A stretch of 64,000 bases of DNA, from the NCBI GenBank assembly GCA_947172415.1, contig OX359199.1, positions 212,001 to 276,000 on the forward strand. Reading direction: 5' to 3'. This stretch comes from Chondrosia reniformis (Eukaryota > Porifera > Demospongiae > Chondrillida > Chondrillidae). This document shows, one piece after another, positions 17,701 to 57,782 of the stretch (positions are counted from its first letter, which is position 1; the number at the start of each line of letters is the position of its first letter). A model generated the notes under the pieces. That model did no database searches and was not told the origin of the DNA. It saw only the letters and a list, made by a program, of their open reading frames with translations. A program made the translations under genes and the position numbers.

Positions 17701-20013
17701 TGTGTCTTTGCCTTATTTATTGTTTTCCATAGTTAGTTAGTTGAGGATCTCAAAAGTATACATGCTAGTCTATTCAAACCAATAGCTATGCATATATTAA
17801 CATTTTTTATTTGTTGCAGACTGCCAGATATGCTCCAGACCCAAGTGCTATTCCTATACAATGCCCACAGAAACTCTGCTCTGCCCGTTAGTATATAATA
17901 CATTGAAAGATTAATTTTAGTAATGTAATTTTTCTTATAATATCTACAGCAGCTGTAAAGGATAATTCTGTGTCAACTTACTCTTTGCAACCTAGACAGA
18001 GTAAAACTGAACGTGAGCCTCCATTTAATATATATGTATAAACATAATAATGGTGCTAAGTCCTTTTCGTGACTTGCTATATATAATGTATATACCACAA
18101 GCCATAAAAGAACTTAGCAATCATGCATATATTGATATGTAATTAAGACTACAACTACAATCAAGTCTGACAGTATATGTATCTGCTTGTCCTATATATA
18201 TAGCTTCAAATGGTCATAGCTTATCTGAAAGTGTAAACTGTAAGTTTCAAAGCTGTATATACGTACATGTAATTAAATATCAATATTACTAGTGAGATTC
18301 TATATAACAATATTATTTAAACATAACATTTCATAATCTCATACCATTTAAAGATGAAACTATGGAGAGATTGCTTGAAGTTCTGTCATCCTCAGGCTTA
18401 AGATTAATTGCAGAACGGCACCTACGTAAGCAGTTAGATTCATTCTGTTGTCAGTGACACATTAAATACAGTCACATGTTATTTTGTGCATATATAGAAA
18501 TTGGTGAACAGCAACAGGAAGTAGAGGCAGCTCTGAAGGAGTCATCAGGTCAACGAAGTGTCTCATTTTCCAAGTTCCTAAAAGTTACAAAAGCAATCTG
18601 TAGAATTGAAGTAGATAAGTAAGTCACAGTAGTAATATCCTGTTTTCTTATTATCAGTATGCATGTTCATGGATATATAGACGAACAGGTACCTGTTTCT
18701 TTATCAAACTGGATGGAAAGACATATTGTATTACCTGCTGCCACTGTGTTGTATCAAATGATCGAGAGGGACAGAATGATGTACAGTACAGTGAAACGGA
18801 TATTCTGGAAGCTTTAAAAAAGGCAAATTGGTATATGCTAGATGACAGTTTTGATCTAGATTCTGGTGGTACCTATTCATTGAAAGAATACTTGAAAGGT
18901 TATCCAGAGCTCCAGGAAAGTATCATTACGATAGTCAAGGTATAATAACCATCATCATTTGACTTGTTACAATATATAGTGGTCAGCTACACTTCGGCTG
19001 TCCCAATATATATATATATATCTGCCGATAAGGAAACCACAAACTATTTAGCTTTGTGAGTACTTATAAGCAGAGTAACCACAAATACTTCCATTGTATG
19101 TCATACTAGTGAGTCCTAATAAGGACAAAACAGCTGTACATCTTTAAAATGGCAAAGGAGAGGTTCCCATTTAGTAAACTTCAGTCTCATTGTGCTCCTC
19201 AAGAGGCATGAGTACATACATGGGTGGGATAAATCAACTTAAGAGTTAAATGTCAAAGACATATTATTATTATAGTACATAAAATGACTCAACCATTAAT
19301 TCTGTAGCCAGAGCTGTTAGCTATTGAGTGTTCTGGGGTACCAAATAGGATTACTCAATTCACAGTGGAGAAAGAGGTTTACAATGGGATTAATATTACA
19401 GCAGCTTATTCAATCTTAAGCATCATTCATATTCCTGATGAACCCACTAATAACCACACTGCAAAGCTAGAGTTTAGCTGTGGCAAAGTAAAAGTCTGCC
19501 GCAAAAAAGAGAGTAAGTATGTATATAGTGCTGCATACATACTAAGGGTAACATAAAATTCACTTTTACCAGCAAGTCTGACATTGGGATATTGAGATCA
19601 TCACATATAAAACAGGACCATTCACCAATTGGTCAATAATTGGTTTGGTTATAAATGCATTTATAATGATTTTGAAATATTTGTGACAACTACTATTCAG
19701 TAAATATGGACTTTGAGTTATTACAAGTATACAATATTATACACACCTCTTGTACCTATTTGAACAGGTTTCTATTGTATGTTTGATAGATGAGTTGGAC
19801 TACTATATTGACACCTACAGGGGATCCTCAGGGTCCCCAGTGATACTGGTTGATGCAGGACCTAACCCCACTACTGTGACAGATAAAGATGGGAAAGAGA
19901 GAAGAATAGCTGAACAAGGATATTGCATCATCGTTGGAGTACATAGGATGCCTGGCTACAAAGAAGAATATAATACTGGAATGATATTTAAAGCTCTTAT
20001 TGATAAACTATAG
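14714..20013 (+). CDS. Gene C: ZU5-linker-trypsin-like protease
   Basis: Exons: 14714-14732, 15043-15632 (ZU5), 15717-15842, 16693-16894 (UPA-like), 16960-17082, 17265-17339, 17453-17493, 17820-17886, (17953-18024), 18354-18425, 18498-18618, 18681-18939, 19308-19512, 19790-20013. Without the bracketed exon the model gives about 707 residues in frame. That exon has lost its donor (CCATTTAAT where genes A and B have GTAAT) and is a multiple of three, so skipping it keeps the frame. The Death domain is reduced to its last 24 residues. The protease has His500 (ITCCHCVV), Glu567 in place of the Asp (ELLAIE) and Ser647 (GSSGSP), then IIVGVHR. A Trypsin_2-type fold is known for similar motifs; activity with Glu is uncertain. 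It is the best preserved ZU5-plus-protease gene here. Confidence 0.75.
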
Positions 20014-20161
20014 AAACTGTATATTTAGTGACTAATATATATATGCAGGACATATGTAGGACATGCATAGTGTATAATTGGATCCGATGCAAGTATATAT
20101 GTACAATATAAGGCAGAGGCCAATCCTCCATCAGATTCCTTCTCCACTGTAAACTGTACAC

Positions 20162-20942
20162 ATGGTTCAATGCTGTTCCGGTGGTTATGAAAGGGCTCAA
20201 TCAGGTCTGAGTGGAGAGCAGCAAAAGTGTCATCAACATAGCGCTTCTAGAAATGGGGAGGAGAGTGAAGGTGGACAAGCTATCTCTCTTCGATGTACAT
20301 GTCCTATGATATATTTACTTTCTTCTCATTTCTATCCAATTTCAATAGATACATATGCATATGCATGACCTATATGCATGTATAAAATATTAAGCACATG
20401 CAAGTTACTATAATTGTATTTAATTTATATTATATTTTATTAAATCATAAAGAAAATTAATGTTTGATAATTATCTCTAATTTACTCAGGAGATGAGGCA
20501 GTAATTGTAGATTCCTATGGTCAAAGATGTGTCCGACTTATAGATTTAATGAAGATTGTCCCTGCAATAGTCAGGATACAAGGAAATAAGTGAATTATAT
20601 GCAAACCTGCAATACCAGCTAGACCTATATTGGGTCTTTCAATTCGCTGCATGCATTTTATTTCTTATACGTAGATCAATCAGCATGGGTTTCTTCATCA
20701 AAATGGGACCAGAAGACAGAGATTTGTGTTATTTTGTGACATGTTGCCTTTTTGAAAAGGATGTTTGGAAAGCTCTTCAAGAGTCATCTCTAGATCTTGA
20801 TCTCATCAAGAAAGAAATATTTCATACAATGATACAGCTGTACACATTTCGTGAAAACCCTTTTCCTGACTTCCAAATACTCATAGATAGACCAGTGGAC
20901 TCTCTAAAAGATATATTTCGCAAAATAGAAATGCATGTGTGA
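20162..20942 (+). CDS. Mini-gene: isolated protease N-lobe
   Basis: Exons 20490-20589 and 20675-20942 encode the linker helix (RLIDLMKIVPAIVRIQ) and protease N-lobe (MGFFIKMG, FVTCCLFEKD) of the family, ending at TGA. A first exon 20162-20270 (MVQCCSGGYERAQ) would fit in phase with a weak donor (GAAG|GTGGAC), giving about 158 residues. The His position is lost (CCLFE) and no C-lobe follows; the next 500 bases are a MITE. It is either a truncated pseudogene or a small protein that mimics the protease N-lobe. Confidence 0.5.
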
Positions 20943-20995
20943 CTGATATACGAGTATAAAGGATCACAAATTACCTTACATGCACGTGACCTTTA

Positions 20996-21463
20996 GGCCC
21001 CATAAACTTAATTATTAGATTCTCATCCTCCTGTCTTCAAATTCTTGGTGAGGCGGGAGGCTATTTATAATTTATATTTTTCAAGCATCTCATGGTCTCA
21101 TATAATATATATATAATAATAATACGTCGGCGGAGACTCTAATGAGCTCGGGCTTGCTCGATCCAAGCGCGCAGTTGACCATCGCGGTCGCATAGTCGCT
21201 GGAGATGGCTTCGGAGTTGTCCAACTGCCCAGAGGAGTATTTGTGGTACAAGTCGATAAGGGTTCCCTGATCAGCAACAACGCATCCATACCAGGGCTTC
21301 AGAACGCGACAGCGCGCACAAATTTGCACCACAACAAAGACCACACCGGCTGCTGCTAACTGAAAGCTACAGGCTGCTAGCTACGTGATCAATAAATTTA
21401 GGCCAAGCGGCCATAAAAAATTGGTGCGGGCGGGGATGAGAATCTAATAAAGTTTATAGGGCC
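20996..21463. mobile_element. Harbinger-like MITE carrying a GC-rich insert
   Basis: The ends GGCCCCATAAACTT and, as reverse complement of the right end, GGCCCTATAAACTT continue into a shared TTAGATTCTCATCC. TTA at 20993-20995 and 21464-21466 is a 3-bp target duplication typical of PIF/Harbinger. The centre (21121-21350) is markedly GC-richer than the region. On the minus strand it has an open frame (CVVADQGTLIDLYHKYSSGQ), perhaps a captured host exon; I cannot name it. The element lies less than 100 bp before the start codon of gene D; paralogue E lacks it. Confidence 0.75.
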
Positions 21464-21561
21464 TTATGTCGCTGAATTACTACTTCGTCCGTTCTGCAAT
21501 AGATCATGTGATGCGTTCCAATACATATATGCATTTGTCCTTATTTGTATCAGGGAACAAG

Positions 21562-24500
21562 ATGAGCGATCGGCAAGCGACTTTAAAGTTGAGTGTCGAA
21601 CAGTTGAGGGAACAATTGAAAAACCCTAGTTTGAGAGATTATCTGAAGAAGAATCTATGTGTAAAAGAAATCTACGATAACCTGTGGTCAGCCAAAGTGA
21701 TCAATAATAGCATAAAGAGTTGGATAAAATCCAAAGAGCCTGCAAAGGAGGAGTGCAATATTAAACTCCTGGATCATATTTGTGAGTGCGGAGACGTGCG
21801 CACGTTTGAAAACCTTTTAGAAGTTTTAAGAAAATCTTCGGATGATTTTCCTATTCATTGTGAAGTAGTTCAGAAGTTGGAGAGAGAATTTGAGGTTGAT
21901 GTAAGCCCTTTAATAACTACATATGTACAATTAAAATGTTTATTTCTGGCTCTCTTGAAATATTATGTAGAAAAGCAAATCCTGTGAAGAATTAGCTCGC
22001 AAAGGTATATTATACCATGCTGATAGTAGAGACTTACATCTATCTATTTTTGAAAGTTTTGAATACTTTAAATTAGATGCTTCTGATTTGGATGGTCATG
22101 GAAATGATAAAACAAAGGGAGAATTAGTTGATGGAGGTTGGAAGTGTATACTACAATTTTTATTGATATAAAAAAGTGATCATATGCATATGCCAATTTG
22201 TATAGAGCCAAGTGTATGGTCTGTAACTTCAGATGATCCATGGCCAGAAGACAGAACCTCAGGAGTGAAAGTGAAGGTAAAAGTTAATTAAAGCAGCCAT
22301 ATATATACTGAGCTATACAGTGATAGCACACTTTTGGAGAATTGAACAATTTCATATACAGATTCTGAAACACTTATAGGCAATTACAACACCGAAATCC
22401 TACTTTATTTTTTATACCACCGAAATAATACTTTAGGCATTCCCAAGGGTGTCCGTCTTCTATCAATGAATTGAAAAGCTTACAAGAGGAAATGAAGCCC
22501 AACGAGTGTCCTAAATAATTTATAAGTAAAATTGACTATTGTTTTTAATATAAACTTGAAACCTGCTACAGTACTAAGATAGATGCCACAGAAATATATT
22601 GCATAGGCTGCTAAATCATTGCTTTTGCGCCCTCAAGTTTTCATGCAAATGGTCACATATAAATACCAAACATTTATATATGTGTCCAGAATGATGTTAC
22701 CTGTTCAGAAAATATATCTGACAATGAGGAAGTTGTGATTGAATCAAAAGAGCTTGAAAGTGAAGGTATGTCATACTGTGTTGTTTTAATATATATCTTG
22801 ATATGTGAATAAAAGAAATGACAATCAAGCCACAAGTAATTGCTAGAACACTAAACTTCATCATACAGAGACTCTTTGGACATTGCACAATAGCTAGATT
22901 GGTATGCCTTAGGTACACTATACATACAGCTAGGGAATCCCCTAGTCTGACCAGGGAATATTATAATGTTACTATATATTCTGTTGGGGCGGAACCACCT
23001 CAATCTAACCATATAATCTAACAAGATAAATCCTTTTTTAAGGAATGAGTGAAAGTACGTCTAATTTCCGCATATACAGCACTGTATACATATGTACTGT
23101 ATATATTTGATATATTTTGCAGTACCAATTCAAAACACTTCAGCAAGTCCGGATCCTACTCTTATTTCACAGGGTATACAGCGTATAGATCAGCCAGAAG
23201 TATGCTACCTTTAATTCCATCTTTCCTATATCTGTAGAGAGTAATCCTCCTAAGGCACATGAGATTGGATTGAACTTGCATCGAAACTTAACTCAGGGTA
23301 TGAGGTTCTATCTTAATCAGGATATTGATTTGTATGCACGTATACATATAGCTCTGTTTGTGTATATAGACCAGGCTGAGGATGGTATGCACCCTGAACA
23401 AGGTGAGTCTATTTGTTTTATGTACTTACTGCACAATGAAGTTTTACACAGTATAATAGACACAATTTCTGTATTGTATTTATGTATGTATACAGCTAAA
23501 CTATCTGGTAGCAGTGTAGTTATGTTTGGAAATAGGGAACAAAGACTGTCTTTTATCCCAGGTATGCTTGATACATATGTACATATATACATTAGATGTT
23601 TGGTTACCAAAGTATATATGTATACTTACAACTATGAAAATGACATGTGACTTGCTGGGAATCGAACTCTGCTTGTTATGACCACCAATGCTCTGACAAT
23701 GAATAATTGCCATATATAGCTGTAATGCTCTATTCTAATACAATATCAATATGTATTACAATTATAACATATATGTCTGTAGGTCAGCAAGAAATCAAAA
23801 AAGCCTTCAGTGAACCAGGATTTTCTAATGGTACTGCATGCATGGTGTAGTATTGAAAACAATATAAGTCATCAGTTGAAATGTCAATATAATATAAATA
23901 CTTATCAAAATGCAATAAATTGTATAATATATATTATTGTAGTATAGTAACTTTAGAGAACATGCCTATATATATACAGTGTGTCTTTATTGTAGCGCCT
24001 CCTGGTAAACTACATTATGGGTAATACAATCAGTACACTAAAAATCTGTCTACGATAAGTATAAATGAAGTTGAAACAAAATGGTGTCTTTCCTGTACTT
24101 AAAGATAGGGGGGATGTGAGACTTACTGCTCTTTTTGGCATTGGCGAATTTTCGGAAACGGAATACTTATGGATACTACCCAAATGATTCTTGAAAATTA
24201 AGAGACATTTCATCTAGAAACGACGGAGAAACGCACAAACTAACACACAAACTCTATTGATGTTATATTACCTTAGTATATTGTAACTTACACTGTATAT
24301 ATATACATTATATGATAATTGCTGTATCATTAATAACATCTTAGCACTAGATGTTGAGCAGCTGAGAACTATTGTAAAAGAAGTGCACAAGAACCAGCCG
24401 GTGGACTATAATTGGAAAATGTTAGCTGCAGAATTGCAACTACCTGTACCAACAATAAGAATTATTCAATTTAACATTTCAACTGATGAAGAAAGACACT

Positions 24501-26964
24501 TTGAGACACTTAAGAAATGGAAACAGCTAAAGCAGTCAAAGGCTACCCTGAATCAATTGGCCTTGGTTTTGAAGATGTTTGCCTTTGATGTCTCAGAGAT
24601 GCTTAAGATTAACATTGGTAATGAAGGTATGTGCATTGAAGTATATACTATTAGTATATACTACTCTAAAAGAGTGATAAATAATAAATATACAGAGAGA
24701 TTGAGTACTGTATTGTCACGGGCATATGTGCACCAAAGGTATATACTAAAAAGCATGCAAAAATAACAGCAAACACTCGAATGCAACCGAAAATCCTGTC
24801 GTTGTTGATTTATGAGGTGTTAATTGATAATACATTGGATAGGGCGGCCATGTTTTTTTGACCTTCCCTACTTAGAGAGTACGACATGTATATGTACATA
24901 TATCCTATAACATGTAACTAATATAAACATGCAATTTACAACAATTTAAGAATGTAAAATATCAGTGAGATTCCTTATTCCTTGTTTGTAGTAACTAAAG
25001 GTCTTACAACTGTATCTTACATGAAAGACCAAAAGATAACATTATCTGATATCTACAAGGTTGCTCATGAACTATATAAATCTGATTGGGGAAAATTTTT
25101 TAAGGAATTGCACTTGGAGAATACCTTTGAAACAACAACAAGTGCGGATTCTATGAGTGAGCAGGGATTCGAGATAGATTTTACGAAGAGATTTTGGGCC
25201 TTGGTAGATTGGATGGAATCAAGGGATCCCAGACAAAAAGATCTCCATAATTTCCTTACTAAAATTGATAAAGGAGGTATCTTCAACAATCTCTTCAAAA
25301 CTGGTAAATATTCCTATTAGAGCTAATTACGTTATGACACACTTTGGTGTATATATATTGTAAATGTACATATGGGTATAGCAATCAATATGCAGGCATG
25401 CACGTTTTATTTACTCTGTAGAATATACTAGGAAAAATCATGATCAGCAGATAGATGATAATGATGGACCAGATGGTATGCATTCAATACCAAAACCTCA
25501 ACCTGTAGAATGTACTATGGCAAAATAAATATTGTTATGTCATAGATTCTGAAGCAATTAATGGGCAAGATATGGTTTCCCTACAAAAGCTACAGGATGT
25601 TTCTAAAGCAGTTTTTCAATTAAAGTATCAACAGTAAGCATATACCATTTGAAAACATTTAATAGATTCATATACACATAATCATATTCACACATATATA
25701 CTATATACGTAGATACTTTAGATGTATATATACTTGTTAATTTATATATACAGTCATGGAACCTCCATCCAAAGGACTCCTTGGGGATTTTAAAAGTGTC
25801 CTTTAGATGAAGGTATTCGGAGGCTTGCACGAAAAATGCTATATGCATGCAACTGTGGTGATATACATATATATAACCACATCTATTGATATAATCATTG
25901 GAGAAAGATTTAAAAAGGACTATAATATTACAATAAATATAATAAATTGTAACTGTCAATACAATTAAATAACTCTATTAATAACATCACGCTATGCAAT
26001 AAATATTATTACACTGTGTGATTCTCGAGTAACAGGAAATAACGGACAATAACAGTAATCAATGTATATGGCCAGTACATATATCACTCATCAATGTTGA
26101 ATGCATATTCATAGCTTTTAAGATCAGCTATAGATCTTGAATTGCAGTTTATATGCTTACTTTGCTAATGTAGACAAACTGGAACATGCTTCTTTGGCGT
26201 ACTAGAAGGCAAAGTGTATTTGGTAACATGCTGTAGCTATCTTTTCAAGAATGAAATGCCTTCAGAAGAAAATAATGAAAACGAGCCTGAGCATCTAAAG
26301 TCTGCTGTTTCAAATGCTGAAGTTATAATACCAAATAAAGATTCCCATAATATTGCTTTAATTTGTGATTTAAACAATGGTTTTTTACACCACGTGAGTT
26401 GATTGTATAGACTCTGTTTTCATGTACAATACTTATAGGACAATGTTTTCTCCATTTCAGTGTGGCATAATATACATTCAATGTAGAAATGACAAGCAGA
26501 AGGATCCATTCTATAGACCAATTAAGATACACGAAGGACGTGCTGTTAGCCTGGGCAGCATTTTGAGTGTTCTTCAGTTTCATGAACAAAAAATGTTTCT
26601 TAGTTACGGCCCAGTGGAACAATTGCAAGTGAAAAAAACTGAACCCAGAAGTAAGCAAAATATATGCATGTATTTACACAATAAATATATACATATACAC
26701 AATTACACAATAAATGGTCCATCTATATATGGTGTCAGCTGTATAAAGTATCATGCTGTATTTTGAATAGGTTATGGTATTAAACTTGCAATGCATTCTA
26801 TTGACACAAAGAAAAGCTCCTCGGGTGCTCCTGTACTTCTAGCTATTGAAAATGACTACTATGTAGTTGGAGTCCACAAAGGAAGAGAAGAAACAAAAAA
26901 AACTGCATTGCTCTTTAATCTTGATCATGTCAGACTACATTACCAACGTAGTGTATTACACTGA
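21562..26964 (+). CDS. Gene D: CARD-Death-Death-protease
   Basis: A complete, phase-checked 17-exon model gives 725 residues: 21562-21900 (CARD), 21971-22004, 22077-22136, 22206-22276, 22690-22765, 23123-23173, 23238-23297, 23370-23402, 23496-23561, 23783-23830, 24345-24626 (Death 1, residues 280-373), 24992-25303 (Death 2), 25422-25475, 25546-25633, 26174-26393, 26461-26650 and 26771-26964 (protease, about residues 525-725). The CARD starts MSDRQATLKLSVEQL with a typical NIKLLDHICECGDVRTFENL core. In the protease His is replaced (VTCCSYLF) and the Asp motif reads GIIYIQ, but Ser is kept (SSSGAPVLL) followed by VVGVHKG, so it should be inactive. Its middle exons lie in a block copied from the 5' end of a gene H relative. 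Probable death-fold scaffold. Confidence 0.8.
22868..23600. repeat. Copy of gene H 5' region inside gene D
   Basis: 22868-23050 matches 39632-39800 (promoter and first exon of gene H, including GGGAATCCCC and AGGAATGAGTGAAAGTACG). 23070-23600 matches 40870-41430 (linker exons), with the H sequence between them deleted. The first ATG of the H type is thus embedded in an intron of gene D and could work as an internal promoter. Confidence 0.85.
22933..22942. promoter_or_regulatory. NF-kappaB-like site (GGGAATCCCC), copy inside gene D
   Basis: The palindromic context CTAGGGAATCCCCTAG contains a perfect match to GGGRNNYYCC and lies about 100 bp before the embedded H-type start. Function is inferred from the motif and from its conservation in the H promoter. 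Confidence 0.4.
23640..23715 (-). mobile_element. tRNA-derived SINE relic
   Basis: On the minus strand the sequence contains a pol III A-box-like stretch (TCAGAGCATTGGTGG) and, about 30 bases on, a good B box within GAGTTCGATTCCCAGCA. The arms do not form a sound cloverleaf, so a SINE head or tRNA pseudogene is more likely than a functional tRNA. It lies in an intron of gene D. Confidence 0.55.
24790..24885. repeat. Diverged intronic repeat shared with gene FG
   Basis: GTTGATTTATGAGGTG…AGGGCGGCCATGTTTTT…CTTAGAGAGTAC matches 38792-38870 at moderate similarity. Both copies lie in introns of family members (D and FG). No coding sense. Confidence 0.6.
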
Positions 26965-27590: not shown

Positions 27591-28592
27591 ATGAGCGATC
27601 GGCAAGCGACTTTAAAGTTGAGTGTCGAACAGTTGAGGGAAAAATTGAAAAAGCATGATTTGAGAGACTATCTGAAAAAGAATCTATATGTAAAAGGAAT
27701 CTGTGACAGCCTGTGGTCGGCCCAAGTGATCAATGATAGGACAAAGAGTTTGATATCCCAAGAGCCTGCAAAGGAGGATTGCAATATTAAACTCCTGGAT
27801 TATGTTAATGACTGCGGAGACGTGCGCACGTTTGAAAACTTTTTAGAAGTTTTAAGAAGATCTTCTAAGGATATTCCTATTCATGGTAAAGTAGTTCAGA
27901 AGTTGGAGAGAGAATTTGAGGTTGATGTAAGCCCTTTAATAACTACATATGTACAATTAAAATGTTTATTTCTGACTCTCTTGAAACACTATGTAGAAAA
28001 GCAAATCCTGTGAAGAATTAGCTCGCAAAGGTATATTATACCATGCTGATAGTAGAGACTATATACTTACATCTATCTAATATGAATCAGTTGATGGAGG
28101 TTGGAAGTGTATATACTACAATTTTTATTGATATAAAAAAGTGATCATATACATATGCCAACTTGTATTGAGCCAAGTGTACAATATATATGGGCTATAC
28201 TTTGCGTACTGTACTAGTACATGTTTAGTAGTGCAAGCCGAATATTATCAATAAGGAATATTCGTATCCGCATAGCCTGCTCTAGCGTCACAGATTGACG
28301 TTAATAAATCCCCGTAAACGACCAAAAAAGATGACTGTCTTTCCCGTAACGGATCATGTGTTTGATAGATGAGTTGGACTACTATATTGACACCTACAGA
28401 GGATCCTCAGGGTCCCCAGTGATACTGGTTGATGCAGGACCTAACCCCACTACTGTGACAGATAAAGATGGGAAAGAGAGAAGAATAGCTGAACAAGGAT
28501 ATTGCATCATCGTTGGAGTACATAGGATGCCTGGCTACAAAGAAGAATATAATACTGGAATGATATTTAAAGCTCTTATTGATAAACTATAG
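27591..28592 (+). CDS. Gene E: chimeric CARD fused to protease C-lobe
   Basis: Exons 27591-27926 (CARD, a close copy of gene D exon 1), 27997-28030 and 28369-28592 (a near-identical copy of the last exon of gene C) join in phase to give about 197 residues. The C-lobe keeps GSSGSP with the catalytic-type Ser but has no N-lobe, so His and Asp are absent and activity is impossible in cis. The promoter of D is copied too (GGGAACAAG before the ATG), so it may be expressed. It could be a pseudogene or a CARD-only regulator; the open frames are intact. Confidence 0.6.
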
Positions 28593-28895: not shown

Positions 28896-29640
28896 GGGCA
28901 GAGGGATTACGGGGTATATGTATGTCACATTTCATCAAGAATCAATATATACTGTTTGCATGACAGATATAGTATTGATGACATTGGTTTAATAAAGGGA
29001 TTTCCCCTTCAAAACACCATGTGACATATTTCCTTAATAGCTTCAAATTGATTATTAATAGCTAGAAAAAAGATTTGTGTTGTGTGTTTCTCATTCTCCA
29101 ACTTTGAAATCTATCTATCTATATAATATGTATAATAATGCATGCATGGAGCGTATATGCATGACTGTGAATATATACGGGGGTACAATTTAAGTATATG
29201 TTCACATGTATTATACATACACCTACATGGTGGATTGTTTTTCTGCAAACCCACCAGAATTATTAAAAAAGGTTCCTGACAGCTTATGATCCCTTCAATA
29301 ACTGTCAGGAAATTTCTTTCACATTTTACACTTATGGAGAGGAGCGAAAAATCAAAAGTAAGTGTCCCTGCTTATGTAAATGTAGACACGTATACGCTGA
29401 TCGATCATTCTTAACACATGCAGGTTCCGCGAGAAGAGCGCCCAGTATCTACTCATTTTAAACTTCAACTTTCGCCGACCCTGGCAGGTTCGTGCTATTT
29501 ATATAATTGGGTGAATAAGTACATACGCCTCGCATGCGTGTCCATTTCTATCGATTATAGAAATAGTGCGTCATAAAAGCGATACAAAAAGTATGTAGAA
29601 ATATCTTTGCATTTTCACGCATAAACACATCTGTCGTATA
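28896..29640. other. Spacer before gene FG
   Basis: No gene is evident. A segment at 29525-29595 (ACGCCTCGCATGCGTGTCC…AAATAGTGCGTCA) resembles 4606-4670 downstream of gene A. At 29640 the conserved upstream flank of the ZU5 copies begins. Confidence 0.5.
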
Positions 29641-29993
29641 CTAATCCAAACTATTCGGCACATTTAGTTGCGATGGGTAACTGAAGTGTCACATATACTA
29701 GACTAAGTCAACCTAGTGTGATTGGTGTGCAGTGAACAAGAAATGAGTCTTGCTCAGAAATCCCTAAAAGCTGAAAGTAAGATCAAATCAATAGATAGAT
29801 CTCTACTGTGCGTTTTTTACCTTAATGTTCACCTGTATGGCGGGACACTTTAATATCTGACGGTCGATTAATAATATTTTGGAAATATCGATTTTATTGA
29901 TATCTGTTAGAAGTATTTTCTAAACCAGTTGTTTAAGGATGAATTTAAAAATGGAAAAAAAAAACAAAATTTAAATAATAATTATGGCCATCA

Positions 29994-32900
29994 TGGAAGA
30001 AGGTAATTAATATAATGTAGAAAGGACATCCTAATTTATGACCTACATGTTTTGATTTAATAGTAAGTGCTACCGGTATATATACGTACCATCTCAATGC
30101 ACTTATATAAGATCTAAACTATATATAGTATATCCTTAATATGTCCAAACTGTAATATTTGTTTTTTGTAACATTTGTAACTCTCATGATCAGACACTAC
30201 TTTATTTTCTGCATATATATACAACTTCACATTTATGTACCCTCACACTTGTTTAAACTATTAATTAGTTTACAATAAAAATGATTAAATAAAGTTTCAA
30301 TTCCTAAAAAAATCTACTCCAATAACTTTTTAGCACATGATCATGAACTTCAGCTGAAGGATCTTTGTTGGCTCCCCCTTGGAATCAACAACATTCAGGT
30401 TAATACTATTATGGGTGGTACCTATAACCTGGAACAGATAGAAAGTGGTGGGGCTATCCAGGAGCTTGATCACTGTTGGATCAGAGTACACCCTCATGAT
30501 CAGCTTGGTAGCTCAGACAGTGCCCAGATAAACGTTCGATATGGTTTTGTAGTCACTGGACCATTTATTTTGCCCGACGGTTACAAGTTAGTCAGTCCAG
30601 TGGTGTACCTTGACTTGAATATGGATGTGGTGTCGAAGCCACTGGACCTGCACATTCCAACTTGGAGCAGTGATCCTACGAGTGTTAGGTACATCAAAGC
30701 TCCTCATGTACCTAATACTGAGGGAAAGTACATCTTTCAACTGCTGAGTTCAGATGAAAACTCAGAAACTGTCAAGGTATTCCACTTATGCTTAATTGCT
30801 AAAGTGGTGAAGATGAAGATTCCTGAAAATTACTATCTATCTTGGTGGGAAAAGCAGGAACTTGATGGTGCCACTTACATGTATCGTGTTGTTGTCACAC
30901 ATGCAGTTGGACTGTGGCTTAAGGTATGTATAATGGCATATCAGATTAACCATATAGAATTCATATTTACAAGTCTATACATGTGATGTGTAGATCCTCA
31001 AAGAAACGTGGAAGCAAGAGGGTTGGAAAAGAGATTCTAATATTAAACCTGAGGAGGTTCATTTTGAATCCGCCATAACAGTACAGCTACCAGAGTGCAC
31101 TGCATCAATATTTGGCCAGGTACTGTAATATGTACACTCTTGTACAGACCTCAGTGGTTATAGATATTCTTATCCCTTGAGCGTGACAAATTATATAGCC
31201 ATGCATTTAAATATTTGACAGTTATTTAGCTATCTTTACCATGCAGTGGTATACAGCAGGGAACCTTCAAGGACCATATCAAGTTACACAAGAGGCAATA
31301 GCCACATTGGATATTGCCTCTTCTGCTATAGCCTCACACTGCTGTATGTAATGTAATGGTGGTTACTCCACTGTAACGATGACTAATGACTCCCCAATGA
31401 CTACAATAAAACCACAATTGGCACGAAAGATATATCCTAGAGCCTTGCCATTTAAGATCTACACCTCATACTCTCAACAGAGAGTAAAGCTTTTAACTTT
31501 CCCAAGCCTATAATTGTCCACCTATTCTGTTCAATCCATTCACCAGATTTAATCACCCCCCCCCCCAAAAAATCCATGTAACATTTATTAAATTTTATTG
31601 CTAAATTACAATTTTAATATTTTGCAAGCACATATGCATCCCATCCATGTTAATTATTAATTATATTTATAACAGACCCCCACGTACCCTCCCTGATTTA
31701 TTTCACCTGTTAATAATCACACACATTGTGCAACACACACTTTTTTTCCAATTTGCACTAATTTCCTGCCAATTTTCGCATTACTTTCCTCATCTCTCTC
31801 CTGCTGTATTAATCCACTGATGAAGACAGCTGAATAGTTATTGCACCATAGTTTTAAAACATGGTTGGTATCATACTTATATGTATACAGAATATAATAT
31901 GTACGTACAATCTGTTTTCATATTCATATCAATTTTTATTAATATACTTTATATATAAATGTAGAGAAGATTCATAACTAAGACATCAGTTGACTATGAA
32001 GTTGATGACGCAGACCTTGAGTACAAAGTCGAAGAACATGTCTACCCCCCTTTCATAGTCATTCGCAGTCCGATACTTAATAGGAGAATTGAGTCAACAT
32101 GTAAAGTTGTTGAAGTTGATAAAAATGATCATCCCTTGGCAAAATACAACTTTATAACATCAGAAAGTTAGTTCACAGTATGCGTAACATCTATATACGT
32201 ATGTATACATACTCATCTTAGAGATGATATGATGTGCCACGTATACGTAGTTATTAGTGACAATAAAATGTATTAGATATATAGAAAGACATTTTCATAG
32301 CTTTACCAGTCAAAATTACATTTTAGATGATAAGGATTTCTTCTAATTGTACCAAACTCTTATCTTTGAAATGGTTCATCTTTAGTCTTTTGAGCATCTA
32401 TATAGAGATGCAGTTGGCCCCTAGGGTCAAAACCTCTGAATCTCTATACAATGAAAATTGCGCTGGGGCGAGAAAATAGGGTAAAATAGCCAAAAATGTA
32501 AATGCAACTCCACACAATGACAGTGAAATAAGTGTAAAGGCAGCAAATAAGTATATAAAGGAAAGTAGGACATAGACAAATGCTTCCTACAGCTGTTTTT
32601 CCATACATTTAATTTTTTCCCCTGATATATATGTTTATATGTATGGTGTTGTACCTTTAATATGGCCTCTTAACGCCTCTTTCTTCTCATATACAGTACA
32701 TAACTGTGTAATTCTGAATTGATTACTATTAAAAATTGGGAGTCTGTATGGCTTTCTCCAAGCGGTTGGCAAATGCTCCCCAGAAAGCCCCACATGTAGC
32801 TAAAGTAGATAAATTATTTATTTATATAGGTTGAAGTTGAATTCAAAAGGTTTTATATAGATATCATCATTTCAATTTAACAGGGGTCGATACAGTATGT

Positions 32901-48318: not shown

Positions 48319-51300
48319 ATGAGTCTTGATCAGCAATCTTTACCTCTCCCACAGCAGAGTACCGATCTCAATGGTAAGTTGTTGTACGTCTAGACTGTTG
48401 GTAGAAATAAAATTTTACTGACGTTGGTTTCGTACAGTAGAGAAAAGTAAACCAGCTGGGCAATTTGTGTACCACTCTCGTGTAAGTTATTTAGATGTGA
48501 ATTCCTCTTTATACTACTTTTATATGTTCATAAATCTATATACCGTAGGGACTTAATCATGGCGATGATTCAACACGTAAAAATGGAGATGGCGAGACTC
48601 TACAAACAGCATACACTTCTAGGAGTGCTGAATCTAGATTTGAGATCACAAGTGTAATCAAGCAAGGTGAAGCAAATTGTGAGAATGAGCCTGAAGCAAC
48701 TCAACAACCTAGAACCAGAAGCAAGAGCCTTCCAAATATTGAAAAAGATATAGGTATGCATGGAGATATATAATATACTGCATGAGCGCTTAATTCTTCA
48801 TGACAGTGTGTGCAATCAAGTTATGTAGTTCCTGCAGATTGAATATGTTTTTTTTGCAATAAGTGTTTGCAAAATGTCATTCAATCAATCTTCCAACAAA
48901 TGAACATTATTCCTAGTATATATAGACAGAATTGGAAGACATATATTACGTCTATTATAATAAGGAAAACATAATTTTAAAATTGCAAGAAAGATTTATT
49001 ATTTAGTTAACTAAAGATATTTTATTATCAAGTTATAAAAGTTTAATTCATAAAAATATAAGTTTATATTTGTAATGTTAGGTGGAAAAGTGGATGAAAG
49101 AGTTTTAAAAGAAATTGCTTGTAAACTGAAACGCAGAGGATATGATTGGAAGATGCTGGCATGTAAGTTGGAATTAAAAGTAGAAATAATTCATGACATT
49201 GAGGAAGAAAATGAAGAAGAAAGTAATCCTAACTTTGAAGTATTGAAAAGTTGGCAAGATGCGGTATACAACAGTGTCACACAGGATGCGGCTGTTGGAT
49301 GCCATAGTCAATTGTATCAAGCTCTGAGTGATTTGGATTTTCAAAGGATTGCACACCTTATACCAAATAGTACGTAGGTGTAACATACATACATATAAAT
49401 GCATGCTACCAGTGTGACTAATATCAAATGTAATTGTTTTATTTCCAGGCCAAACTAGCAGTAAGCCTTTCCGGGCTAAAACAAGTCCAGCACCTAATAA
49501 CCAAGAGGATATAACTTTGTGGATGTTAAGCCAAGCTGCTGAGGAGTTGCGTTCCAAGTCTTGGGATACTTTTAGAGAGTGTTTCGATGACACTAAACTT
49601 GATGAAATTGTAAAAAAGTATGAGTTGATTGGCAAGCAGGAAAATAGTTACACAAGATGCTTCTGGGCGTTGGTAGAATGGAAGCGATTGAAAAAAAGGA
49701 TCTACCATGACTTTGATCTTCTTTTGAGAAATCTTGGATTTGGGGATTTGGCTGAAAGGATAGTTGGAAAGCCTGGTAATGCTTTGATATGATATGATGT
49801 GGAATATTAAGTATATTACGTATGTGTAGTTATACTATAAAATAATAACCTTTATCTGTATATATAATTTACAGAATATAAAATGAATTGTAAACATGGA
49901 GCAGACCATGATGATGAAGGATTATTGCAATATTCCAAAGGCCAGAAAATGGTTGACCTGGAAAAGCTAAATGAGCTAGCCAAAGCTGTATTTCCATTCA
50001 CATCAGGGTAAGCTGAATGATAGCGATTATTAAAGATACATTTCATTGTATTAACTGTCTTACATATCACTTTCTGTAGTAAAAGAGGAACCTGTTTTTT
50101 CATTTATTATGAGAATGGCACATACCTAATTACAGCCTGCCATTCCTTGTTAAAGAAGAGCTATATGAAATCAATCCAAGAGAACGGTTTGGATTCACTC
50201 CGTGAGGAAGTACGTAAAAGAGTAGGCTGTGCAGCTATATTTACAAGACAAGACTCTCAAACTAAGGTTTCAAAACTTATAGGGCATCAGGATGAAAAAG
50301 TATATTTTTGTGTAAGTGAATGTGACAACTATTGCAGTATACACAGTGCAAGTTACAATATATCATATAGCAATCTAAAGTAATTAAATAATTCACAGCC
50401 TCCTAAGAAGGTCATGTGACCCAAATTAAATATGTAAAAAGAACTGGACAAGTTATATGTTGTTTTCAGTACACATTTATATTGTAAATAAGTGTAGCAA
50501 AAGAAGAAACAAAACAACATAATCACTACTCCTACTACTTCTGTTATACTGAACAATCTACAACTCATCCTATATTTATCTACATATACTACAGTCAAAC
50601 ATCTTCAGCAACTGTTTCTGTATAGCATTGGGCCATAGGTAACATGCTTCAACTTGTCCCTGCATAGTTATAGAAATGAGGTTGACTCTTGCTTGGGAAA
50701 AGTTTGAATAATCTGAGTTACTTAAATTCTATTCATTAGCCTCTTTCCTGTGTACTGTTTAGACAAGCTGTCTTGAGTGGGTGGTCTATTTTTGCTAAGG
50801 GCTAGTTATTGTTAGTATAACAGTCTGGCCCTTCCCTTAAGCTTATGGACCAGGTATCCTTACATGTCACCATTAAACCATATAAGTAGGTAAATAAAAA
50901 GTATTGTCCATATAATGGAAGCATGTTTTGTGGCCTTGCCACTGTCAAAATATTATTGCACAGTATATGGAATAAACTATAAAAAAAATTAAAAAATGAG
51001 TTAGTTCATTGCGGGTTGCTTTCTCCAGTTCCCTTTGCACCAAATCCTATACAATTCTTGAATGCACTTTTTAATAATCACCATCTCCAGCTCTTCTTGT
51101 TTGTATCTGTTGGTTTTCACAAGTTTGTATAGGGAATTAAATGACTCACAGTGTAGAAAGCCTCTACAGCCTTGTATACCATTACACTTTTAGAGCTTCC
51201 TTAATCAAAACATATATATATCAGTTTTTTGTTGCCTTAGTTCTTTGCAAACTGTCTATATTGACACTTGTAATACTCTTTTTATATGTACTGTATCACC

Positions 51301-51739
51301 TATATTTAGAATGATCTGATAGCTATTAAGGTCAGTGGCACAGAACTGCCAGCCTCCTGTCGACCAATCAAAATCAAAAGCAGTGTAAAAGAAGACATTG
51401 TTAATGAGAATTGTTTCTTAAGTATTCTACACTTTCCATATAGTAATTTTATGAAATTTAACTATGGGATGGTAGTGAGTAAACAGTCACTGCCCATTGA
51501 AGGTGAATGAAAATTGATCTGTTTTGCACAATTACATGTCTACAAGTGATGAAGAGTTGTGTTTCTTATATTTAGATGTGACCATCTTGAACTATTACAT
51601 GGACACTGCTGATGGGTCTTCTGGGGCTCCAGTATTGATGGCTCACTGTGATGATGGTGTACCTGAGGCAGAGTACCATGTGGTGGGAGTCCACAAGGGA
51701 AAAACTAAAACATGGACTATAATACAGGACTGTCACTAA
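48319..51739 (+). CDS. Gene J: Death-Death-trypsin-like protease, intact triad
   Basis: A complete 9-exon model with consistent phases gives 546 residues: 48319-48373, 48438-48481, 48549-48753, 49082-49369 (Death 1), 49449-49775 (Death 2), 49875-50007, 50080-50311, 51310-51502, 51576-51739. Death 1 has YDWKMLACKLELKVEIIHDI. Death 2 begins LWMLSQAAEELRSKSW. The helix MVDLEKLNELAKAVF leads into the protease: RGTCFFIYY, ITACHSL with His372, NDLIAIK with Asp430, DGSSGAPVL with Ser508, then HVVGVHKG. The full His/Asp/Ser set and GxSG motif match the Trypsin_2/HtrA-type fold, so it is probably catalytic. No signal peptide is seen; cytosolic like other death-fold proteins. An intron of about 1 kb (50312-51309) separates His from Asp. 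Confidence 0.85.
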
Positions 51740-52586: not shown

Positions 52587-52915
52587 ATGTTCTATGCTCC
52601 GTGGTGTTATCACTGCAAGAAGGCAAAACCAGAGTTCACAGAGGCCGCGGACACACTCTCCTACGAGAAGAAGAAGGCATTTGCAGCTCTGGACTGCACC
52701 CAGTACCAGGAGATATGCACACAGCAAGGGGTCCAGGGGTTCCCCACCTTCAAGTACTACAGCTACGGGAAGAGGGGCTACCAGTACAGCCAGGGGAGAA
52801 TGAAAGACGACTTTGTGAACTTTATGGTTGATCCTGATAGTGTAGTAGCTCGTGATGAACTATAAAATCCACAATTGTATAGTCTATTAAACCATGCATT
52901 CTAATATATTTAGGG
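52587..52915 (+). pseudogene. PDIA5 3' fragment (third thioredoxin domain)
   Basis: Matches PDIA5 from about 47508 to the stop and 3' UTR. The active-site CGHC has become CYHC (TGTTATCACTGC), which breaks the usual motif. The frame from TGTATATGTTCTATGCTCC to RDEL stays open for about 94 codons but has no signal peptide and no N-terminal domains. Confidence 0.9.
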
Positions 52916-53285: not shown

Positions 53286-56200
53286 ATGAATCTTGATTCG
53301 TCTTCAGAAGTTTTACCTATCTCTGAGCAGAGTACCGGTCGCGATTGTGGTAAGTTGCGTATAGACGAAATAAAGTTTACTGACAAATATTCTTGATTGT
53401 ATCCATACAGTGGCCATGGAGGAAAGCGAACCAAATGACGAGAAGTCAGGAACTAGTAAACTTGCAATTGTGCCTGAGGTATGTTGAATAGATGTGAATT
53501 CCATATGTTTGATGATGTATAATTGCTGTATACTACAGGGACGGCCTCCACTTACGGATATCTCAAAACGTGGAGATGGCAAGACAGCAAGCACAGTGCA
53601 ACCATCAGATGAATATGGTTCTGAGACCACCTCTGTATGTCCATTTAAGGAACGTGGAGAGATAAATTGCGTGAAGTCACAGCCAATGGAGCCTAATTAT
53701 GTAAATGATTTTGAATCTGAAAATGCTAAACCACCTAGACCTAGACGTATGAGCCTTCCCAACATTGAAATAAATACAGGTATATACATAGGTATACGTA
53801 CATACAATCAGCATACAAATGTTAGTACATTTGTATATGTGTGTCAGTGAGAGCTAGAGATTCTTATTTGTTTGCAAAATGTCAATTATCGAGAAATGAA
53901 CTCCTTGTATATATGGCTGTGCACCTGGGTGGACAGCATAGTAGCCTTGCAAGTAGCTATGGCAGCTCTCTGCCCCTTAACCCAGTAACTGGCCATGGTT
54001 GGCTTTTCTTTTTCCTCTCTAATAATCTCCCGCCACTCTAATAATAACAATACTAATAATATAATAATATAGAGGAAGATAATTGGAAATTGATTTAGAA
54101 GTTTAATTTATGCGATTACAAGAGTAATTGTATATGATATATGTATAAGTAACCTCTCCCTATCATTTTATAGATATATAGTTTAACACATTTTACAAGA
54201 AATTTATGGAAAATTATATATATGTATGTTTTTTCTCAATGTGGATCAAGATTTTTTGAAAGAAATTGCTGAAGAACTAACAGGCTGGGATTATGATTGG
54301 AAGATGTTGGCATGTGAATTGGAATTAGGAGCAGAGAGAATTTGTACAATTGAGAAAAATTGTAAAAAAGAAAGTGATCGCAACTTCAAAGTATTGACCA
54401 GTTGGCGGGAAATTGTTCTGCGAAGTTGTGGCACTGGATATAGTAATCAATTGTGTCAAGTTCTGAAAGATTTGAATTTTCAAAATATTGCAAAACTGGT
54501 TCCAAAATGTAGGTGTAACATAATAGATGTATTACATGTGCATAAGCTACCATGAGTAGTGAAGGAGACTGTCATTGGGTATGTTTTTTTACTTCCAGGC
54601 CAACACATCCATGTGCCTCAACATGCTGAAACAGGCCCAGCATCTAGTAGGTCTGAAAAGAAATTAACTTTATCCATGTTGAGCAAAGCTGCCAAGAGTT
54701 TATGCACCAAGCCTTGGGATGTATTTAAGCATAAACTATTTATTGATCGGGAAGGTATTAAAGAAATTGAAGCAAAGTACTCTTTGGAAAATGAGGTTCC
54801 TTTTACTAGATTTTTCTGGGCTTTGGTAAAATGGAATGAATGCAATAGTAGAAAGTGTCATGACTTTGGTCTTCTCCTGGATAGATTGGGACATGGAGCT
54901 TTAGCAACAGAAATTCTTGGAACACCAGGTAAATGAATGAAGGTAGATCAGTTGAAAAGCTGCACTGCATGGGGCCGGGTCTCTGATAGCTAGTCTGATG
55001 AATAGGAATCGCCACCAATTAGTTTGAATGCATGGAATCTGCTTAGTTGGTATGTAGTATAAATATGGATGATTGGAGCATTGCTGTGGCTGAATACTGG
55101 ATGATGGTCGTAACTAGCTATCCCGGGTTCGATTCCCAGCAGTTGCTTCTTTCAAGTTCTCATTCTCTTCATAAAGTTTGTGATTAATTTGATGATTAAT
55201 TTGATCTTTGATATGTACGTATCAATATACAACAAGTAAATAAAAAACATTTACAAAAATTATGTTAGAAGTAGGAATGGCAGTGTTCACTAATACATCT
55301 GCAAAATGTATCAAAACAAGATAGTGATTATATGATAAGGCTAATCTTATAGAAGTTTACATACGTATATACTGAAATTTAAGTAACTTAAATTTCAGTT
55401 TCAGTAGGAATGGCAGTGTTCACTAATACATCTGCAAAATGTATCAAAACAAGATAGTGATTATATGATAAGGCTAATCTTATAGAAGTTTACATACGTA
55501 TATACTGAAATTTAAGTAACTTAAATTTCAGTACTCCCGAACTCTCTGATATTCAATATATTATTATGTACTTCTGTGTGCATATAGTATACCCAACGAA
55601 AACTCATGAGACTCAGACAGACTATGTTGGTGAAGGACAATTGAGTGATAACTTTAGTAAACTAAAGTGTATGTGTCTTTTTATATATAGATATATATGA
55701 CATCAACTGCATTTGCCATGGTCCTATAATATGTAATTAATCTAAAACACCAGTTCCTGTATGGGTATATACACCTATGACTTGCATTATATAATGCCTC
55801 TGTTTTTGTATATTCTTTCTTTTGCTCCATTAACACTTATTATTAATGACCTATATAGTAACTTTTGGTCCTCTGAATATGACTTGTTTATGTATATATT
55901 ATTTATGAACAGTCCAGTTTGGACTGTAGCTAACAAACATGAACAATCATATGCATATATATGTGAATTTAATTTTTGAGTTTATTGTATTAATCAGATG
56001 TCTGTTTCTGTTGCATTATATCAACAGTAAATGCAGACCATGCAGCTGATGAACCTGAAGGTAAAGAAATGTATGAATCATCCATTTACAAGTTTATGCA
56101 TATATGAACTCCCTTGCTTAGTGTATGACTTTTGTCTATTCAAATGTATTCCTAATATTTATTAGTCCTTGTATGTGTGTGTATCTTCATGTATATATAT

Positions 56201-57782
56201 ACGTACAGTATACATAGTATGTACATTCAGTTTAATGTTTATGTATAACAGTTAACGTACTTCCCAGACGTATCGAGGGAGACATTCGGGAGTTGATTCA
56301 GGAGCGAGGTCTGAGAAGTGCAGAAGAAGCAAAGAAATTTGCCAAAAAATTATATAGTTAGTTGTGCAATGGATTTATAAACAATTATCCATGTAGTATA
56401 TAGAATAGTCACAATTGGCTTTAATATTATAACAATGTTATGAGTTTGAGATTTGGGACACTTTGGTATGACATTGTGTATTTGCTCGTATTATAAATTC
56501 ATTGCTTGTACCATGATTTTAGGACAAATTTTAGAAGTAGCCACCCAGGAAGCAAATAAGGGCAATAGAGATGAAGTAAAACAACACTTTTCTAAAGGAC
56601 AGGCTTGTGTGCCCTTTAAGGAGTTAGCTGACATAAGGAGAGCTGTAGCTGGAACATTATTTGAGTGTGTTTTATTTGTTAAAAGCCATATACTTGTGGT
56701 TTGATTATCATACTGATTATTCATATACATACGTACAATGGATATGTCATAATACTATGCATTTCTGGTGGAAGGTATGACATTGCAACTTTATATATGT
56801 ACGTACATTAACCTAAGTACATGTTAACTTGTACATATATGTTATATAATATGTACTGAAGATTTTAGATTAGTAGAATCCATCTTTTATACTTTATGTG
56901 CTTATATATTCGTGTGATTTAAAGTTTTTATACCATTTCCCTAACAGTGGTCAACAAGGAACTTGTTTCTTTGCAAGTTGGAATGATAAGACCTATATCT
57001 TCACTTGTGTGCACAATGTGGTTAAAAGGTTTAATGGAATGGACAGATTTAGGAATATGACAGAAGAGGAACAGAGAAAATTGCTTCAAACTGCACTTGA
57101 GAAGCTTTACATTATTTTCCCTGACAAAAGTGGCAAGCTTCCATCGAGGCCAAAAGATGATGAGAAATTTGGAATTCCGTTTGACAAATTTGTTTTTGAT
57201 GTTTCTGATGTGAGTGTTACATTTATATATACATACTATAAGTACTTAACCAACTCTTTCACAAATTGAAGGAGAAGGATATTTTAGCACTTCAGTTTGA
57301 TGAAAGCAAGTCTAATGCCATTCTTAAAAAACATGGTGTGAACGTTGTGCCCCTTCAAGAGGTAAAAAAGGGAGTGTTAATTGTTGGGCAGTACATGTCC
57401 ATCATTCACTGTCCTGGAGCTGTGAGGAATGAGACATCAGTGGAATATTCCATTGGAGAGATAGAACCACCTCATGATCATAGTTAGTGGTATATATTAG
57501 TGATAAATGTATGTGTGCTTTTTGTGTAGTGAAGACAGATGTGCTGTTTCTTATTCAGGAGATCATGAAGACTTAGATTATTATATGGAACCTATTCCAG
57601 AAGGAACCTCAATTATATATTACAATGCGGAAACCCTATCCGGTTCATCTGGAGGTCCAGTCATATTTAATTATGGAGGCAAACAACAAAATGAAAAATG
57701 TTTGATTATTGGAGTGCATCGTGGGTGTGGTTGGGCAGACAAGAGAGCCTCCTTTTTACCAACTTTTTTGAAACAGCTGTAG
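53286..57782 (+). CDS. Gene K: Death-Death-trypsin-like protease, intact triad
   Basis: A complete 12-exon, phase-checked model of 668 residues: 53286-53349, 53411-53478, 53539-53779, 54251-54508 (Death 1), 54599-54928 (Death 2), 55588-55656, 56028-56060, 56252-56356, 56523-56664, 56948-57209, 57272-57482, 57559-57782. Death 1 contains YDWKMLACELELGAERICTI as in gene J. Death 2 has FFWALVKWNECNS. The protease has GQQGTCFFASW, FTCVHNVV with His459, KDILALQF with Asp527 and SGSSGGPVIF with Ser625, then IIGVHRG, the most canonical active site in the window. It has three more linker exons than gene J, including an Arg/Glu-rich helix (RRIEGDIRELIQERGL). Probably an active cytosolic protease under death-fold control. 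Confidence 0.85.
55081..55150 (+). mobile_element. tRNA-derived SINE relic
   Basis: TGGCTGAATACTGG resembles a pol III A box, and CCCGGGTTCGATTCCCAGCA holds a perfect B box about 40 bases later. The end GATTCCCAGCA is the same as in the minus-strand relic at 23652, so both are likely one family. It lies in an intron of gene K. Confidence 0.6.
55271..55536. repeat. 133-bp tandem duplication with palindromic end
   Basis: GTAGGAATGGCAGTGTTCAC to the end is repeated once (starts 55271 and 55404), almost identical. Each unit ends in CTGAAATTTAAGT-A-ACTTAAATTTCAG, a perfect 13-bp-arm palindrome. A recent intronic duplication in gene K. Confidence 0.95.

What the first reader, a model, noticed from the sequence alone, without database searches (positions are those of the whole stretch)
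18681..57782. Death-fold adaptors fused in cis to a trypsin-like protease, as a clustered family
At least six genes (A, C, D, FG, H, J, K) end in the same three-exon protease module (GTCFF…H / D-[IL]-[LI]-A-[LI] / GSSG[GAS]P…VGVH) behind Death and/or CARD domains, and in two cases ZU5. In animals the protease joined to death folds is usually a caspase; a serine-protease counterpart with Death, CARD and ZU5 in one polypeptide is unusual. Bacterial conflict systems are known to pair death-like adaptor domains with trypsin-like peptidases, which makes an ancient or convergent parallel attractive. Function in immunity or cell death is inference.
Basis: partly seen in the sequence, partly recalled or inferred. 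Interest (0 to 1): 0.92.

Follow-up and report, generated by a model that had tools for sequence, protein, structure and literature searches.

The report
Sponge death-fold proteases with inactive copies
A sponge chromosome carries a cluster of genes that appear to join cell-death adaptor domains to a bacterial-V8-like serine protease, and one branch of the family has lost the catalytic residues while the protease part is still conserved, which resembles the way animals pair active caspases with inactive decoys.

Summary
Window = Chondrosia reniformis chr11:212001-276000 (inferred from lengths). The family is real: seven three-exon protease modules (P1-P2-P3) in the window, seven more elsewhere. 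In 12 of 14 a death-fold exon lies within about 2.1 kb upstream on the same strand, with conserved intron phases. The protease is Trypsin_2-like, nearest in the PDB to V8/glutamyl endopeptidases. C has Glu for Asp; D lacks His and Asp; A, H and I have lost His and Ser (Ser to Pro). The dead copies plus one on chr5 form one clade (100/100), all Death + CARD-like + protease, and their last exon evolves under constraint (dN/dS 0.22-0.32). ZU5 is supported only through a relative; only C plausibly joins it to a protease. No transcript was seen. Best reading, inferred: protease activated by death-fold assembly, with c-FLIP-like inactive partners. Prior art: one Nematostella trypsin-Death protein; bacterial CARD- or death-like-domain trypsins. 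New variant of a known kind.

The parts
825..4511 (+). Gene A: Death (842-1078), CARD-like (2497-2778), linker, inactive protease P1 3531-3788, P2 about 4104-4241, P3 4332-4502; start uncertain
   Evidence: His to Gln, Ser to Pro; P1/P2 join out of frame with the GT-AG sites seen
9550..12915 (+). Gene B: ZU5/UPA-like exons (9882-10679) and linker exons; half a Death exon further on (13840-13935); no protease of its own; end uncertain
14723..20013 (+). Gene C: ZU5/UPA-like (15045-15842), linker, pre-protease exon 18498-18618, protease P1 18688-18939, P2 19308-19511, P3 19795-20013; triad H-E-S
   Evidence: the ZU5-protease join is a model only
20691..22291 (+). Orphan P1-like fragment (20691-20831) and CARD-like exon (21562-21900)
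   Evidence: P1 fragment E 2.3e-3
22649..26964 (+). Gene D: Death 24371-24604, second domain 25036-25284, protease P1 26181-26348, P2 26461-26643, P3 26788-26964; His to Ser, Asp to Gly, Ser kept
27591..28592 (+). Fragment E: CARD-like exon and an orphan last protease exon 99% identical to C's
29334..33319 (+). Gene F: third ZU5/UPA-like copy; end, and whether it continues into H, unresolved
35412..39173 (+). Gene H: Death 35803-36045, CARD-like 36652-36936, inactive protease P1 38067-38336, P2 38549-38722, P3 38979-39149
39778..43815 (+). Gene I: Death 40480-40719, CARD-like 41457-41753, inactive protease P1 42819-43079, P2 43269-43454, P3 43609-43779
48319..51739 (+). Gene J: Death 49102-49362, second six-helix domain 49511-49768, protease P1 50087-50278, P2 51310-51501, P3 51587-51709; full H-D-S triad
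53286..57782 (+). Gene K: Death 54253-54501, second domain 54664-54921, protease P1 56958-57209, P2 57275-57478, P3 57615-57782; full H-D-S triad

Best explanation
A tandemly duplicated family of probably intracellular proteins in which one or two death-fold domains (Death, CARD-like, or Death plus an unrecognised six-helix domain) are joined in cis to a C-terminal V8-like PA-clan serine protease. Inferred mechanism: the death-fold domains co-assemble on an upstream platform, and crowding switches on the protease (J, K and the H-E-S copies), which cleaves unknown substrates in a defence or cell-death pathway. Residue 194 is Ser in all ten copies that keep Ser195, so trypsinogen-type activation through Asp194 is not available. 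The Death + CARD-like branch (A, H, I, chr5) keeps the module but not catalysis and would enter the same assemblies as an inhibitor or regulator, as c-FLIP does for caspase-8. Shown: family, order, exon phases, active-site state, dead clade, constraint on the dead P3 exon. Inferred: one transcript per gene, activity, activation, partners, pathway.
For: Fourteen P1-P2-P3 sets; in 12 a same-strand death-fold exon lies 0.3-2.1 kb upstream; on chr5 the order Death, CARD-like, dead P1-P3 recurs. Of 21 death-fold exons examined, 21 are entered in phase 1 and 20 left in phase 1; P1 is entered in phase 2 in 12 of 13, P2 in phase 0 in 12 of 12, P3 in phase 1 in 13 of 14 (best-scoring sites). So these death-fold exons run to a splice donor, and P1 starts in mid-codon. 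Trypsin_2 in 7 of 8 modules; PDB V8/glutamyl endopeptidase E 1.8e-4, SplB 2.1e-3. Dead modules are homologous to active ones (hhalign 98.9%). Dead clade 100/100, H-E-S clade 94/97. Dead P3 dN/dS 0.22 (A-H), 0.32 (H-chr5), 0.30 (A-chr5); bootstrap share with dN>=dS 0.030, 0.004, 0.008. Residue states: rows typed.
Against: No transcripts. Left unforced in sub-regions, my gene finder joined death fold to protease in H and, at the laxer of two settings, in K; in I and A only in part; in J, D and C not. In one search it joined them in C, D, H, I, J and K (A without its P1) but also ran neighbouring genes together. Final models were forced through chosen motifs. Splice scores use a generic matrix and no control exons were scored. 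The 401k set has no death-fold exon within 9 kb, and C has ZU5 only. The tree does not group J with K although they share architecture (J with D 74/87, K with 378k/401k 92/97). Death domains of dead and active copies are only 20-29% identical to J's, K's 52%, so co-assembly is untested. No protease structure could be predicted. CARD calls are weak; the second domain of D, J, K is unidentified (hhalign to Death 9.5%). Gene A may be broken. dS is near or beyond saturation in several comparisons.
Confidence: 0.6

Rival explanations
1. Separate genes: death-fold adaptor genes alternate with protease genes in a duplicated block, and the fusion is an artefact of reading exons together.
For: No transcripts; unforced prediction splits J, D and C; the 401k module has no death-fold exon within 9 kb.
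Against: All 21 death-fold exons examined have an in-frame donor candidate before any stop, and 12 of 13 P1 exons have their best acceptor in mid-codon, with conserved phases. The order recurs on chr5 and at chr11:2.45 Mb.
Confidence: 0.15
2. Decaying multigene family: the dead modules are pseudogenes or relics of duplication, and only J, K and the H-E-S copies matter.
For: A's frame break, orphan exons at 20691 and 28374, near-identical recent copies of exons.
Against: Dead P3 dN/dS 0.22-0.32 across A, H and chr5, which share Ser to Pro; H and I have open three-exon modules with fair splice sites; dead clade 100/100.
Confidence: 0.12
3. The dead proteases are not dampeners but scaffolds or sensors: the V8-like pocket binds a ligand or bait peptide and the Death/CARD-like part passes the signal on.
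For: Pocket residues Thr190 and His213 are kept in all four dead copies while His57 and Ser195 are lost; constraint on P3.
Against: No direct evidence; Thr190 and His213 may be structural.
Confidence: 0.3
4. Specific descent from a bacterial CARD/death-like-trypsin defence gene by horizontal transfer.
For: Nearest PDB relatives are bacterial V8 and Spl proteases; the domain pairing exists in bacterial defence.
Against: No close prokaryotic relative found with K's module (close relatives only); the PADLOC match is not specific by control; the modules carry introns at conserved phases.
Confidence: 0.08

Closest known systems
Trypsin-Death protein of Nematostella vectensis (PMC6767649, passages seen)
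   Same: Death domain and trypsin-fold domain in one animal protein
   Different: One protein, said to group with trypsin-PDZ proteins; no family, CARD or inactive branch of it mentioned in the passages I saw. Not compared by sequence here.
Bacterial CARD-trypsin proteases (Caulobacter LypA, Lysobacter gasdermin system; PMC13236601 passages)
   Same: CARD-like domain followed by a trypsin-like serine protease needed for lysis
   Different: Bacterial, LypA with an ATPase domain and an NLR-like partner; no sequence link found; no gasdermin match in the sponge six-frame search (weak for split exons)
bDLD/EAD-trypsin proteins (PMC8195603, passages and section 10)
   Different: Prokaryotic. For Amphimedon, section 10 names caspase, PNPase and HD effectors behind Death-like/TRADD-N units, not trypsin
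Caspase-8/-10 with c-FLIP (PMC7586951, start of abstract in a listing; details recalled)
   Same: Death-fold proteases with an inactive paralogue of the same family
   Different: Different protease fold (C14); DED rather than Death/CARD (recalled)
V8/glutamyl endopeptidases and Spl proteases (S1B)
   Same: PA-clan kinship, T-x-x-G-x-S-G motif and the G-[VI]-H strand
   Different: Bacterial enzymes without death folds (recalled)

Membership tests
PA-clan serine protease (Trypsin_2 / V8-like) | Profile match over most of the domain | tested here: met
   7 of 8 modules match Trypsin_2, best 8.8e-7 (bits printed only for K, 22.1 against 27.6); PDB GEP E 1.8e-4. Dead A, H, I do not match Trypsin_2 but align with the active profile
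PA-clan serine protease (Trypsin_2 / V8-like) | His-Asp-Ser triad | tested here: inconclusive
   H-D-S in J, K, 378k, 401k; H-E-S in C, 209k, 382k, 386k, 2449k; lost in D, A, H, I, chr5
PA-clan serine protease (Trypsin_2 / V8-like) | Two-barrel fold | not testable with these tools
Death domain | Pfam Death over cut-off | tested here: met
   D, H, I, J, K and A's exon
CARD | Pfam CARD over cut-off | tested here: not met
   5 of 12 members match, best E 5.5e-4; the three scores printed are 13.0, 14.5 and 20.9 bits against 23.9; hence called CARD-like
Death-fold (second domain of D, J, K) | Profile match or solved fold match | tested here: inconclusive
   no credible Pfam match; six helices, pLDDT 76, pTM 0.69; fold search switched off
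ZU5 | Pfam ZU5 over cut-off | tested here: inconclusive
   window exon has no match; its 29% relative does, 4.2e-6
Caspase / c-FLIP | C14 caspase fold | tested here: not met
   no C14 match in models A, C, D, H, I, J, K at E<=1 or in 124 window frames at E<=0.01; a works-like claim only
Caspase / c-FLIP | Inactive paralogue inhibits the active one through death-fold contact | not testable with these tools
   needs co-expression
Bacterial CARD-trypsin defence protease | Specific sequence kinship | tested here: inconclusive
   one search found no close relative; the control shows the PADLOC match is generic; LypA itself was not compared
HtrA/Omi | PDZ domain after the protease | tested here: not met
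   no PDZ in the models or window frames

The most novel reading that the evidence does not exclude
Sponges run a serine-protease counterpart of the caspase-8/c-FLIP switch: death-fold platforms activate V8-like proteases by crowding, and a dedicated branch of catalytically dead Death + CARD-like copies sets the threshold. Thr190 and His213, kept in 14 of 14 modules and shared with glutamyl endopeptidases in the alignment, suggest cleavage after Glu/Asp or Gln (pocket roles recalled), which would make it convergent with caspases in specificity too.
Probability: 0.3. Interest if true: 0.87.

Novelty: new variant of a known kind. Interest (0 to 1): 0.62.

Why it matters
If the genes are expressed as modelled, animals have a second way of wiring a protease directly to death-fold assemblies, outside caspases and paracaspases, with its own inactive regulators. 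That would test whether the active/decoy logic of caspase-8 and c-FLIP is a general solution, and would give bacterial CARD-trypsin defence a eukaryotic comparator.

Tried and rejected
Specific kinship with the Lamassu effector LmuA: rejected after the control. Trypsin-like Arg/Lys specificity from Asp189: rejected, because a glutamyl endopeptidase shares the IDT-x-x-G motif. Gasdermin partner: no match, a weak test because of introns. First gene prediction was over-spliced and discarded; one search merged neighbours; one search split some genes. Rfam and tRNA scans empty. NCBIfam uninformative. PDB profile search of the dead modules gave only a 22-residue chance match, of the second domain nothing convincing. 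Second domain against the Death profile: not convincing.

Rows dropped: A was left out of the P2 phase count because of its frame break; chr5 out of the P1 and P2 counts because its P1 start was not resolved. The 21 death-fold exons are 6 Death, 3 second domains and 12 CARD-like; the CARD-like exons at 21562, 27591, chr11:384k and chr5 were not scored. A5 holds 8 of the 10 modules with Ser195, without near-copies 382k and 401k, and its exon edges are approximate. dN/dS was computed for 11 chosen comparisons; H-I over all exons gave no dS.
Full report
Where it is. The window is G000:C11:212001-276000 of a 117,379,552-base, 15-contig genome. C11 is 7,633,987 bases. The published Chondrosia reniformis assembly odChoReni1.1 has 117.37 Mb, 14 chromosomes plus mitochondrion, and chromosome 11 of 7.63 Mb (PMC12181767, outline and section 7 seen). 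The species is inferred from these lengths.

What is there. Own profiles of six-frame exons find seven ordered sets P1-P2-P3 on the + strand, in genes I call A, C, D, H, I, J and K. A, D, H, I, J and K have Death over the Pfam cut-off, followed by a CARD-like exon (A, H, I) or an unnamed second domain (D, J, K), then linker exons, then the protease. Three ZU5/UPA-like exons head B, C and F. Orphan pieces lie at 20691 and 28374. A Pfam scan of 124 open frames of 75 codons or more found no NACHT, LRR, kinase or caspase at E<=0.01; shorter exons were not scanned.

The protease. Single models C, D, J and K match Trypsin_2 over nearly its whole length but below its cut-off; A, H and I do not match. 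Among eight modules from window and genome, seven match, best 8.8e-7. A profile of the eight finds glutamyl endopeptidases (4jcn, E 1.8e-4) and SplB (2.1e-3) in the PDB, with the Asp, Ser and Gly-Val-His blocks aligned; a first profile of four gave only E 0.03. The nearest solved relatives are thus V8-like enzymes.

Active and dead copies. Reading the aligned columns (tabulated from typed rows): H-D-S in J, K, 378k and 401k; H-E-S in C, 209k, 382k, 386k and 2449k; S-G-S in D. In A, H, I and chr5 the His is Q, E, S, E and the Ser is Pro in all four; the Asp column is Gly in H and I, and not safely readable in A and chr5. Numbering is chymotrypsin's, recalled. Dead modules remain homologous to active ones (98.9%). 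In a tree of 14 modules the dead ones form one clade (100/100) and the H-E-S ones another (94/97); J and K do not group, and D sits on a long branch. The dead P3 exon has dN/dS 0.22, 0.32 and 0.30 in the three comparisons among A, H and chr5, and 0.20 for H-I where dS is 1.9; over three exons A-H gives 0.29 and H-chr5 0.35 with dS above 1. The three near-identical H-E-S copies give 0.53, 0.58 and 0.78. That argues for retained function of an inactive module. The method is simple (NG86, short exons, paralogues), and gene conversion is not excluded.

Are they fused? No transcript was available. For fusion: outside the window the same order recurs on the same strand at chr11 208.5-210.4k, 377-380k, 381-384k, 385-389k and 2445-2454k and on chr5, where Death (1834228), a CARD-like exon (1830984) and the dead module (about 1828.6-1829.7k) line up on the minus strand. 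In all, 12 of 14 sets have a death-fold exon 0.3-2.1 kb upstream; C and 401k do not. With at least 142 Death and 150 CARD-like places in 117 Mb, such proximity should be uncommon by chance, though the copies are related, the lists are lower bounds and I ran no formal test. Phases are conserved: death-fold exons 1-in (21 of 21) and 1-out (20 of 21), P1 2-in (12 of 13), P2 0-in (12 of 12), P3 1-in (13 of 14), by best-scoring site; some sites score low and no control exons were scored. Death-fold exons thus look like symmetrical 1-1 modules, apt for shuffling, that run to a donor; P1 begins in mid-codon. Against: an unforced predictor joined the parts in H and, at the laxer setting, K, partly in I and A, and not in J, D or C; one search joined them in six of seven (A without P1) but over-merged; the models were steered by motifs.

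ZU5. Pfam sees no ZU5 in the window exon. A chr11 relative found by the ZU5 profile is 29% identical over its length (E 6e-32) and is ZU5 over the cut-off. C and F are 98% and 91% identical to B in this exon. C alone has a protease before the next gene; B has none, and F may or may not run into H. The claim 'Death, CARD and ZU5 in one polypeptide' is therefore not established. A structure job for this exon failed.

The second domain of D, J and K. It has no credible Pfam match. A genome search with J's copy finds only J and K at E<=1; D joins by profile. AlphaFold2 gives six helices in 97 residues, pLDDT 76, pTM 0.69 from three sequences, which fits a death fold by helix count only; fold comparison was unavailable.

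How it most likely works. Predicted N-termini of J and K show no hydrophobic leader by eye, so an intracellular site is likely. Residue 194 is Ser in all ten copies with Ser195, so the classical zymogen switch is absent (recalled enzymology). With a death fold in front, activation by assembly is the natural guess. Dead copies with a Death domain could poison or tune that assembly, although the Death domains of A, H and I are only 20-29% identical to J's. All of this is inference.

Bacterial link. PADLOC gave LmuA at 4.1e-5 for K. Of four other trypsin-fold proteins of this genome, two score better, one about the same and one has no LmuA match, so it is not specific. No close relative of K's module was found in the prokaryotic collection. 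The resemblance to CARD-trypsin systems (PMC13236601, passages) and bDLD-trypsin systems (PMC8195603, passages) is one of architecture. No gasdermin was detected in the genome; caspases were, at 19 places.

Literature. Ten searches were run in an open-access library only. The one direct hit for the architecture in animals is the Nematostella trypsin-Death protein (PMC6767649, passages); that paper also says sponges have only three trypsins (its list includes Amphimedon). Passages of PMC11797021, PMC3196919 and PMC12909245 did not mention the fusion. I found no report of such a family in sponges or of inactive members; that holds for these searches only.

Noticed in passing
46203-47786, 52554-52865, 58256-58786 (+): A three-thioredoxin-domain, PDI-like gene in one open frame (46203-47786) and two partial copies, one after J and one after K, so J and K may have arisen by duplication of a block that carried the 3' part of this gene.
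   Followed up: partly
44587-46198 (-): A Death-domain gene on the opposite strand (E 2.9e-8) between I and the PDI-like gene, with no protease match in the frames scanned.
   Followed up: no
60490-63423 (-): A 977-codon open frame with no Pfam match at E<=0.01, origin unknown.
   Followed up: no
23189-23650 and 40997-41461 (+): Blocks of about 460 bases, near-identical by eye in translation, placed before the Death exon of D and between the Death and CARD-like exons of I: recent exon shuffling or conversion.
   Followed up: no
36415-36537 against 11768-11890 and 16960-17082 (+): By eye, H's linker exon between Death and CARD-like is near-identical to the linker after ZU5 in B and C, so linker exons move between architectures.
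   Followed up: no
whole genome G000: CARD-like exons related to these are very numerous (150 scored of 282 candidates), with many on C7; Death at least 142 places; caspases 19 places.
   Followed up: no
L072 (C9:6632200-6632700): A further P1-like exon with His kept on another chromosome; its neighbours could not be fetched.
   Followed up: partly
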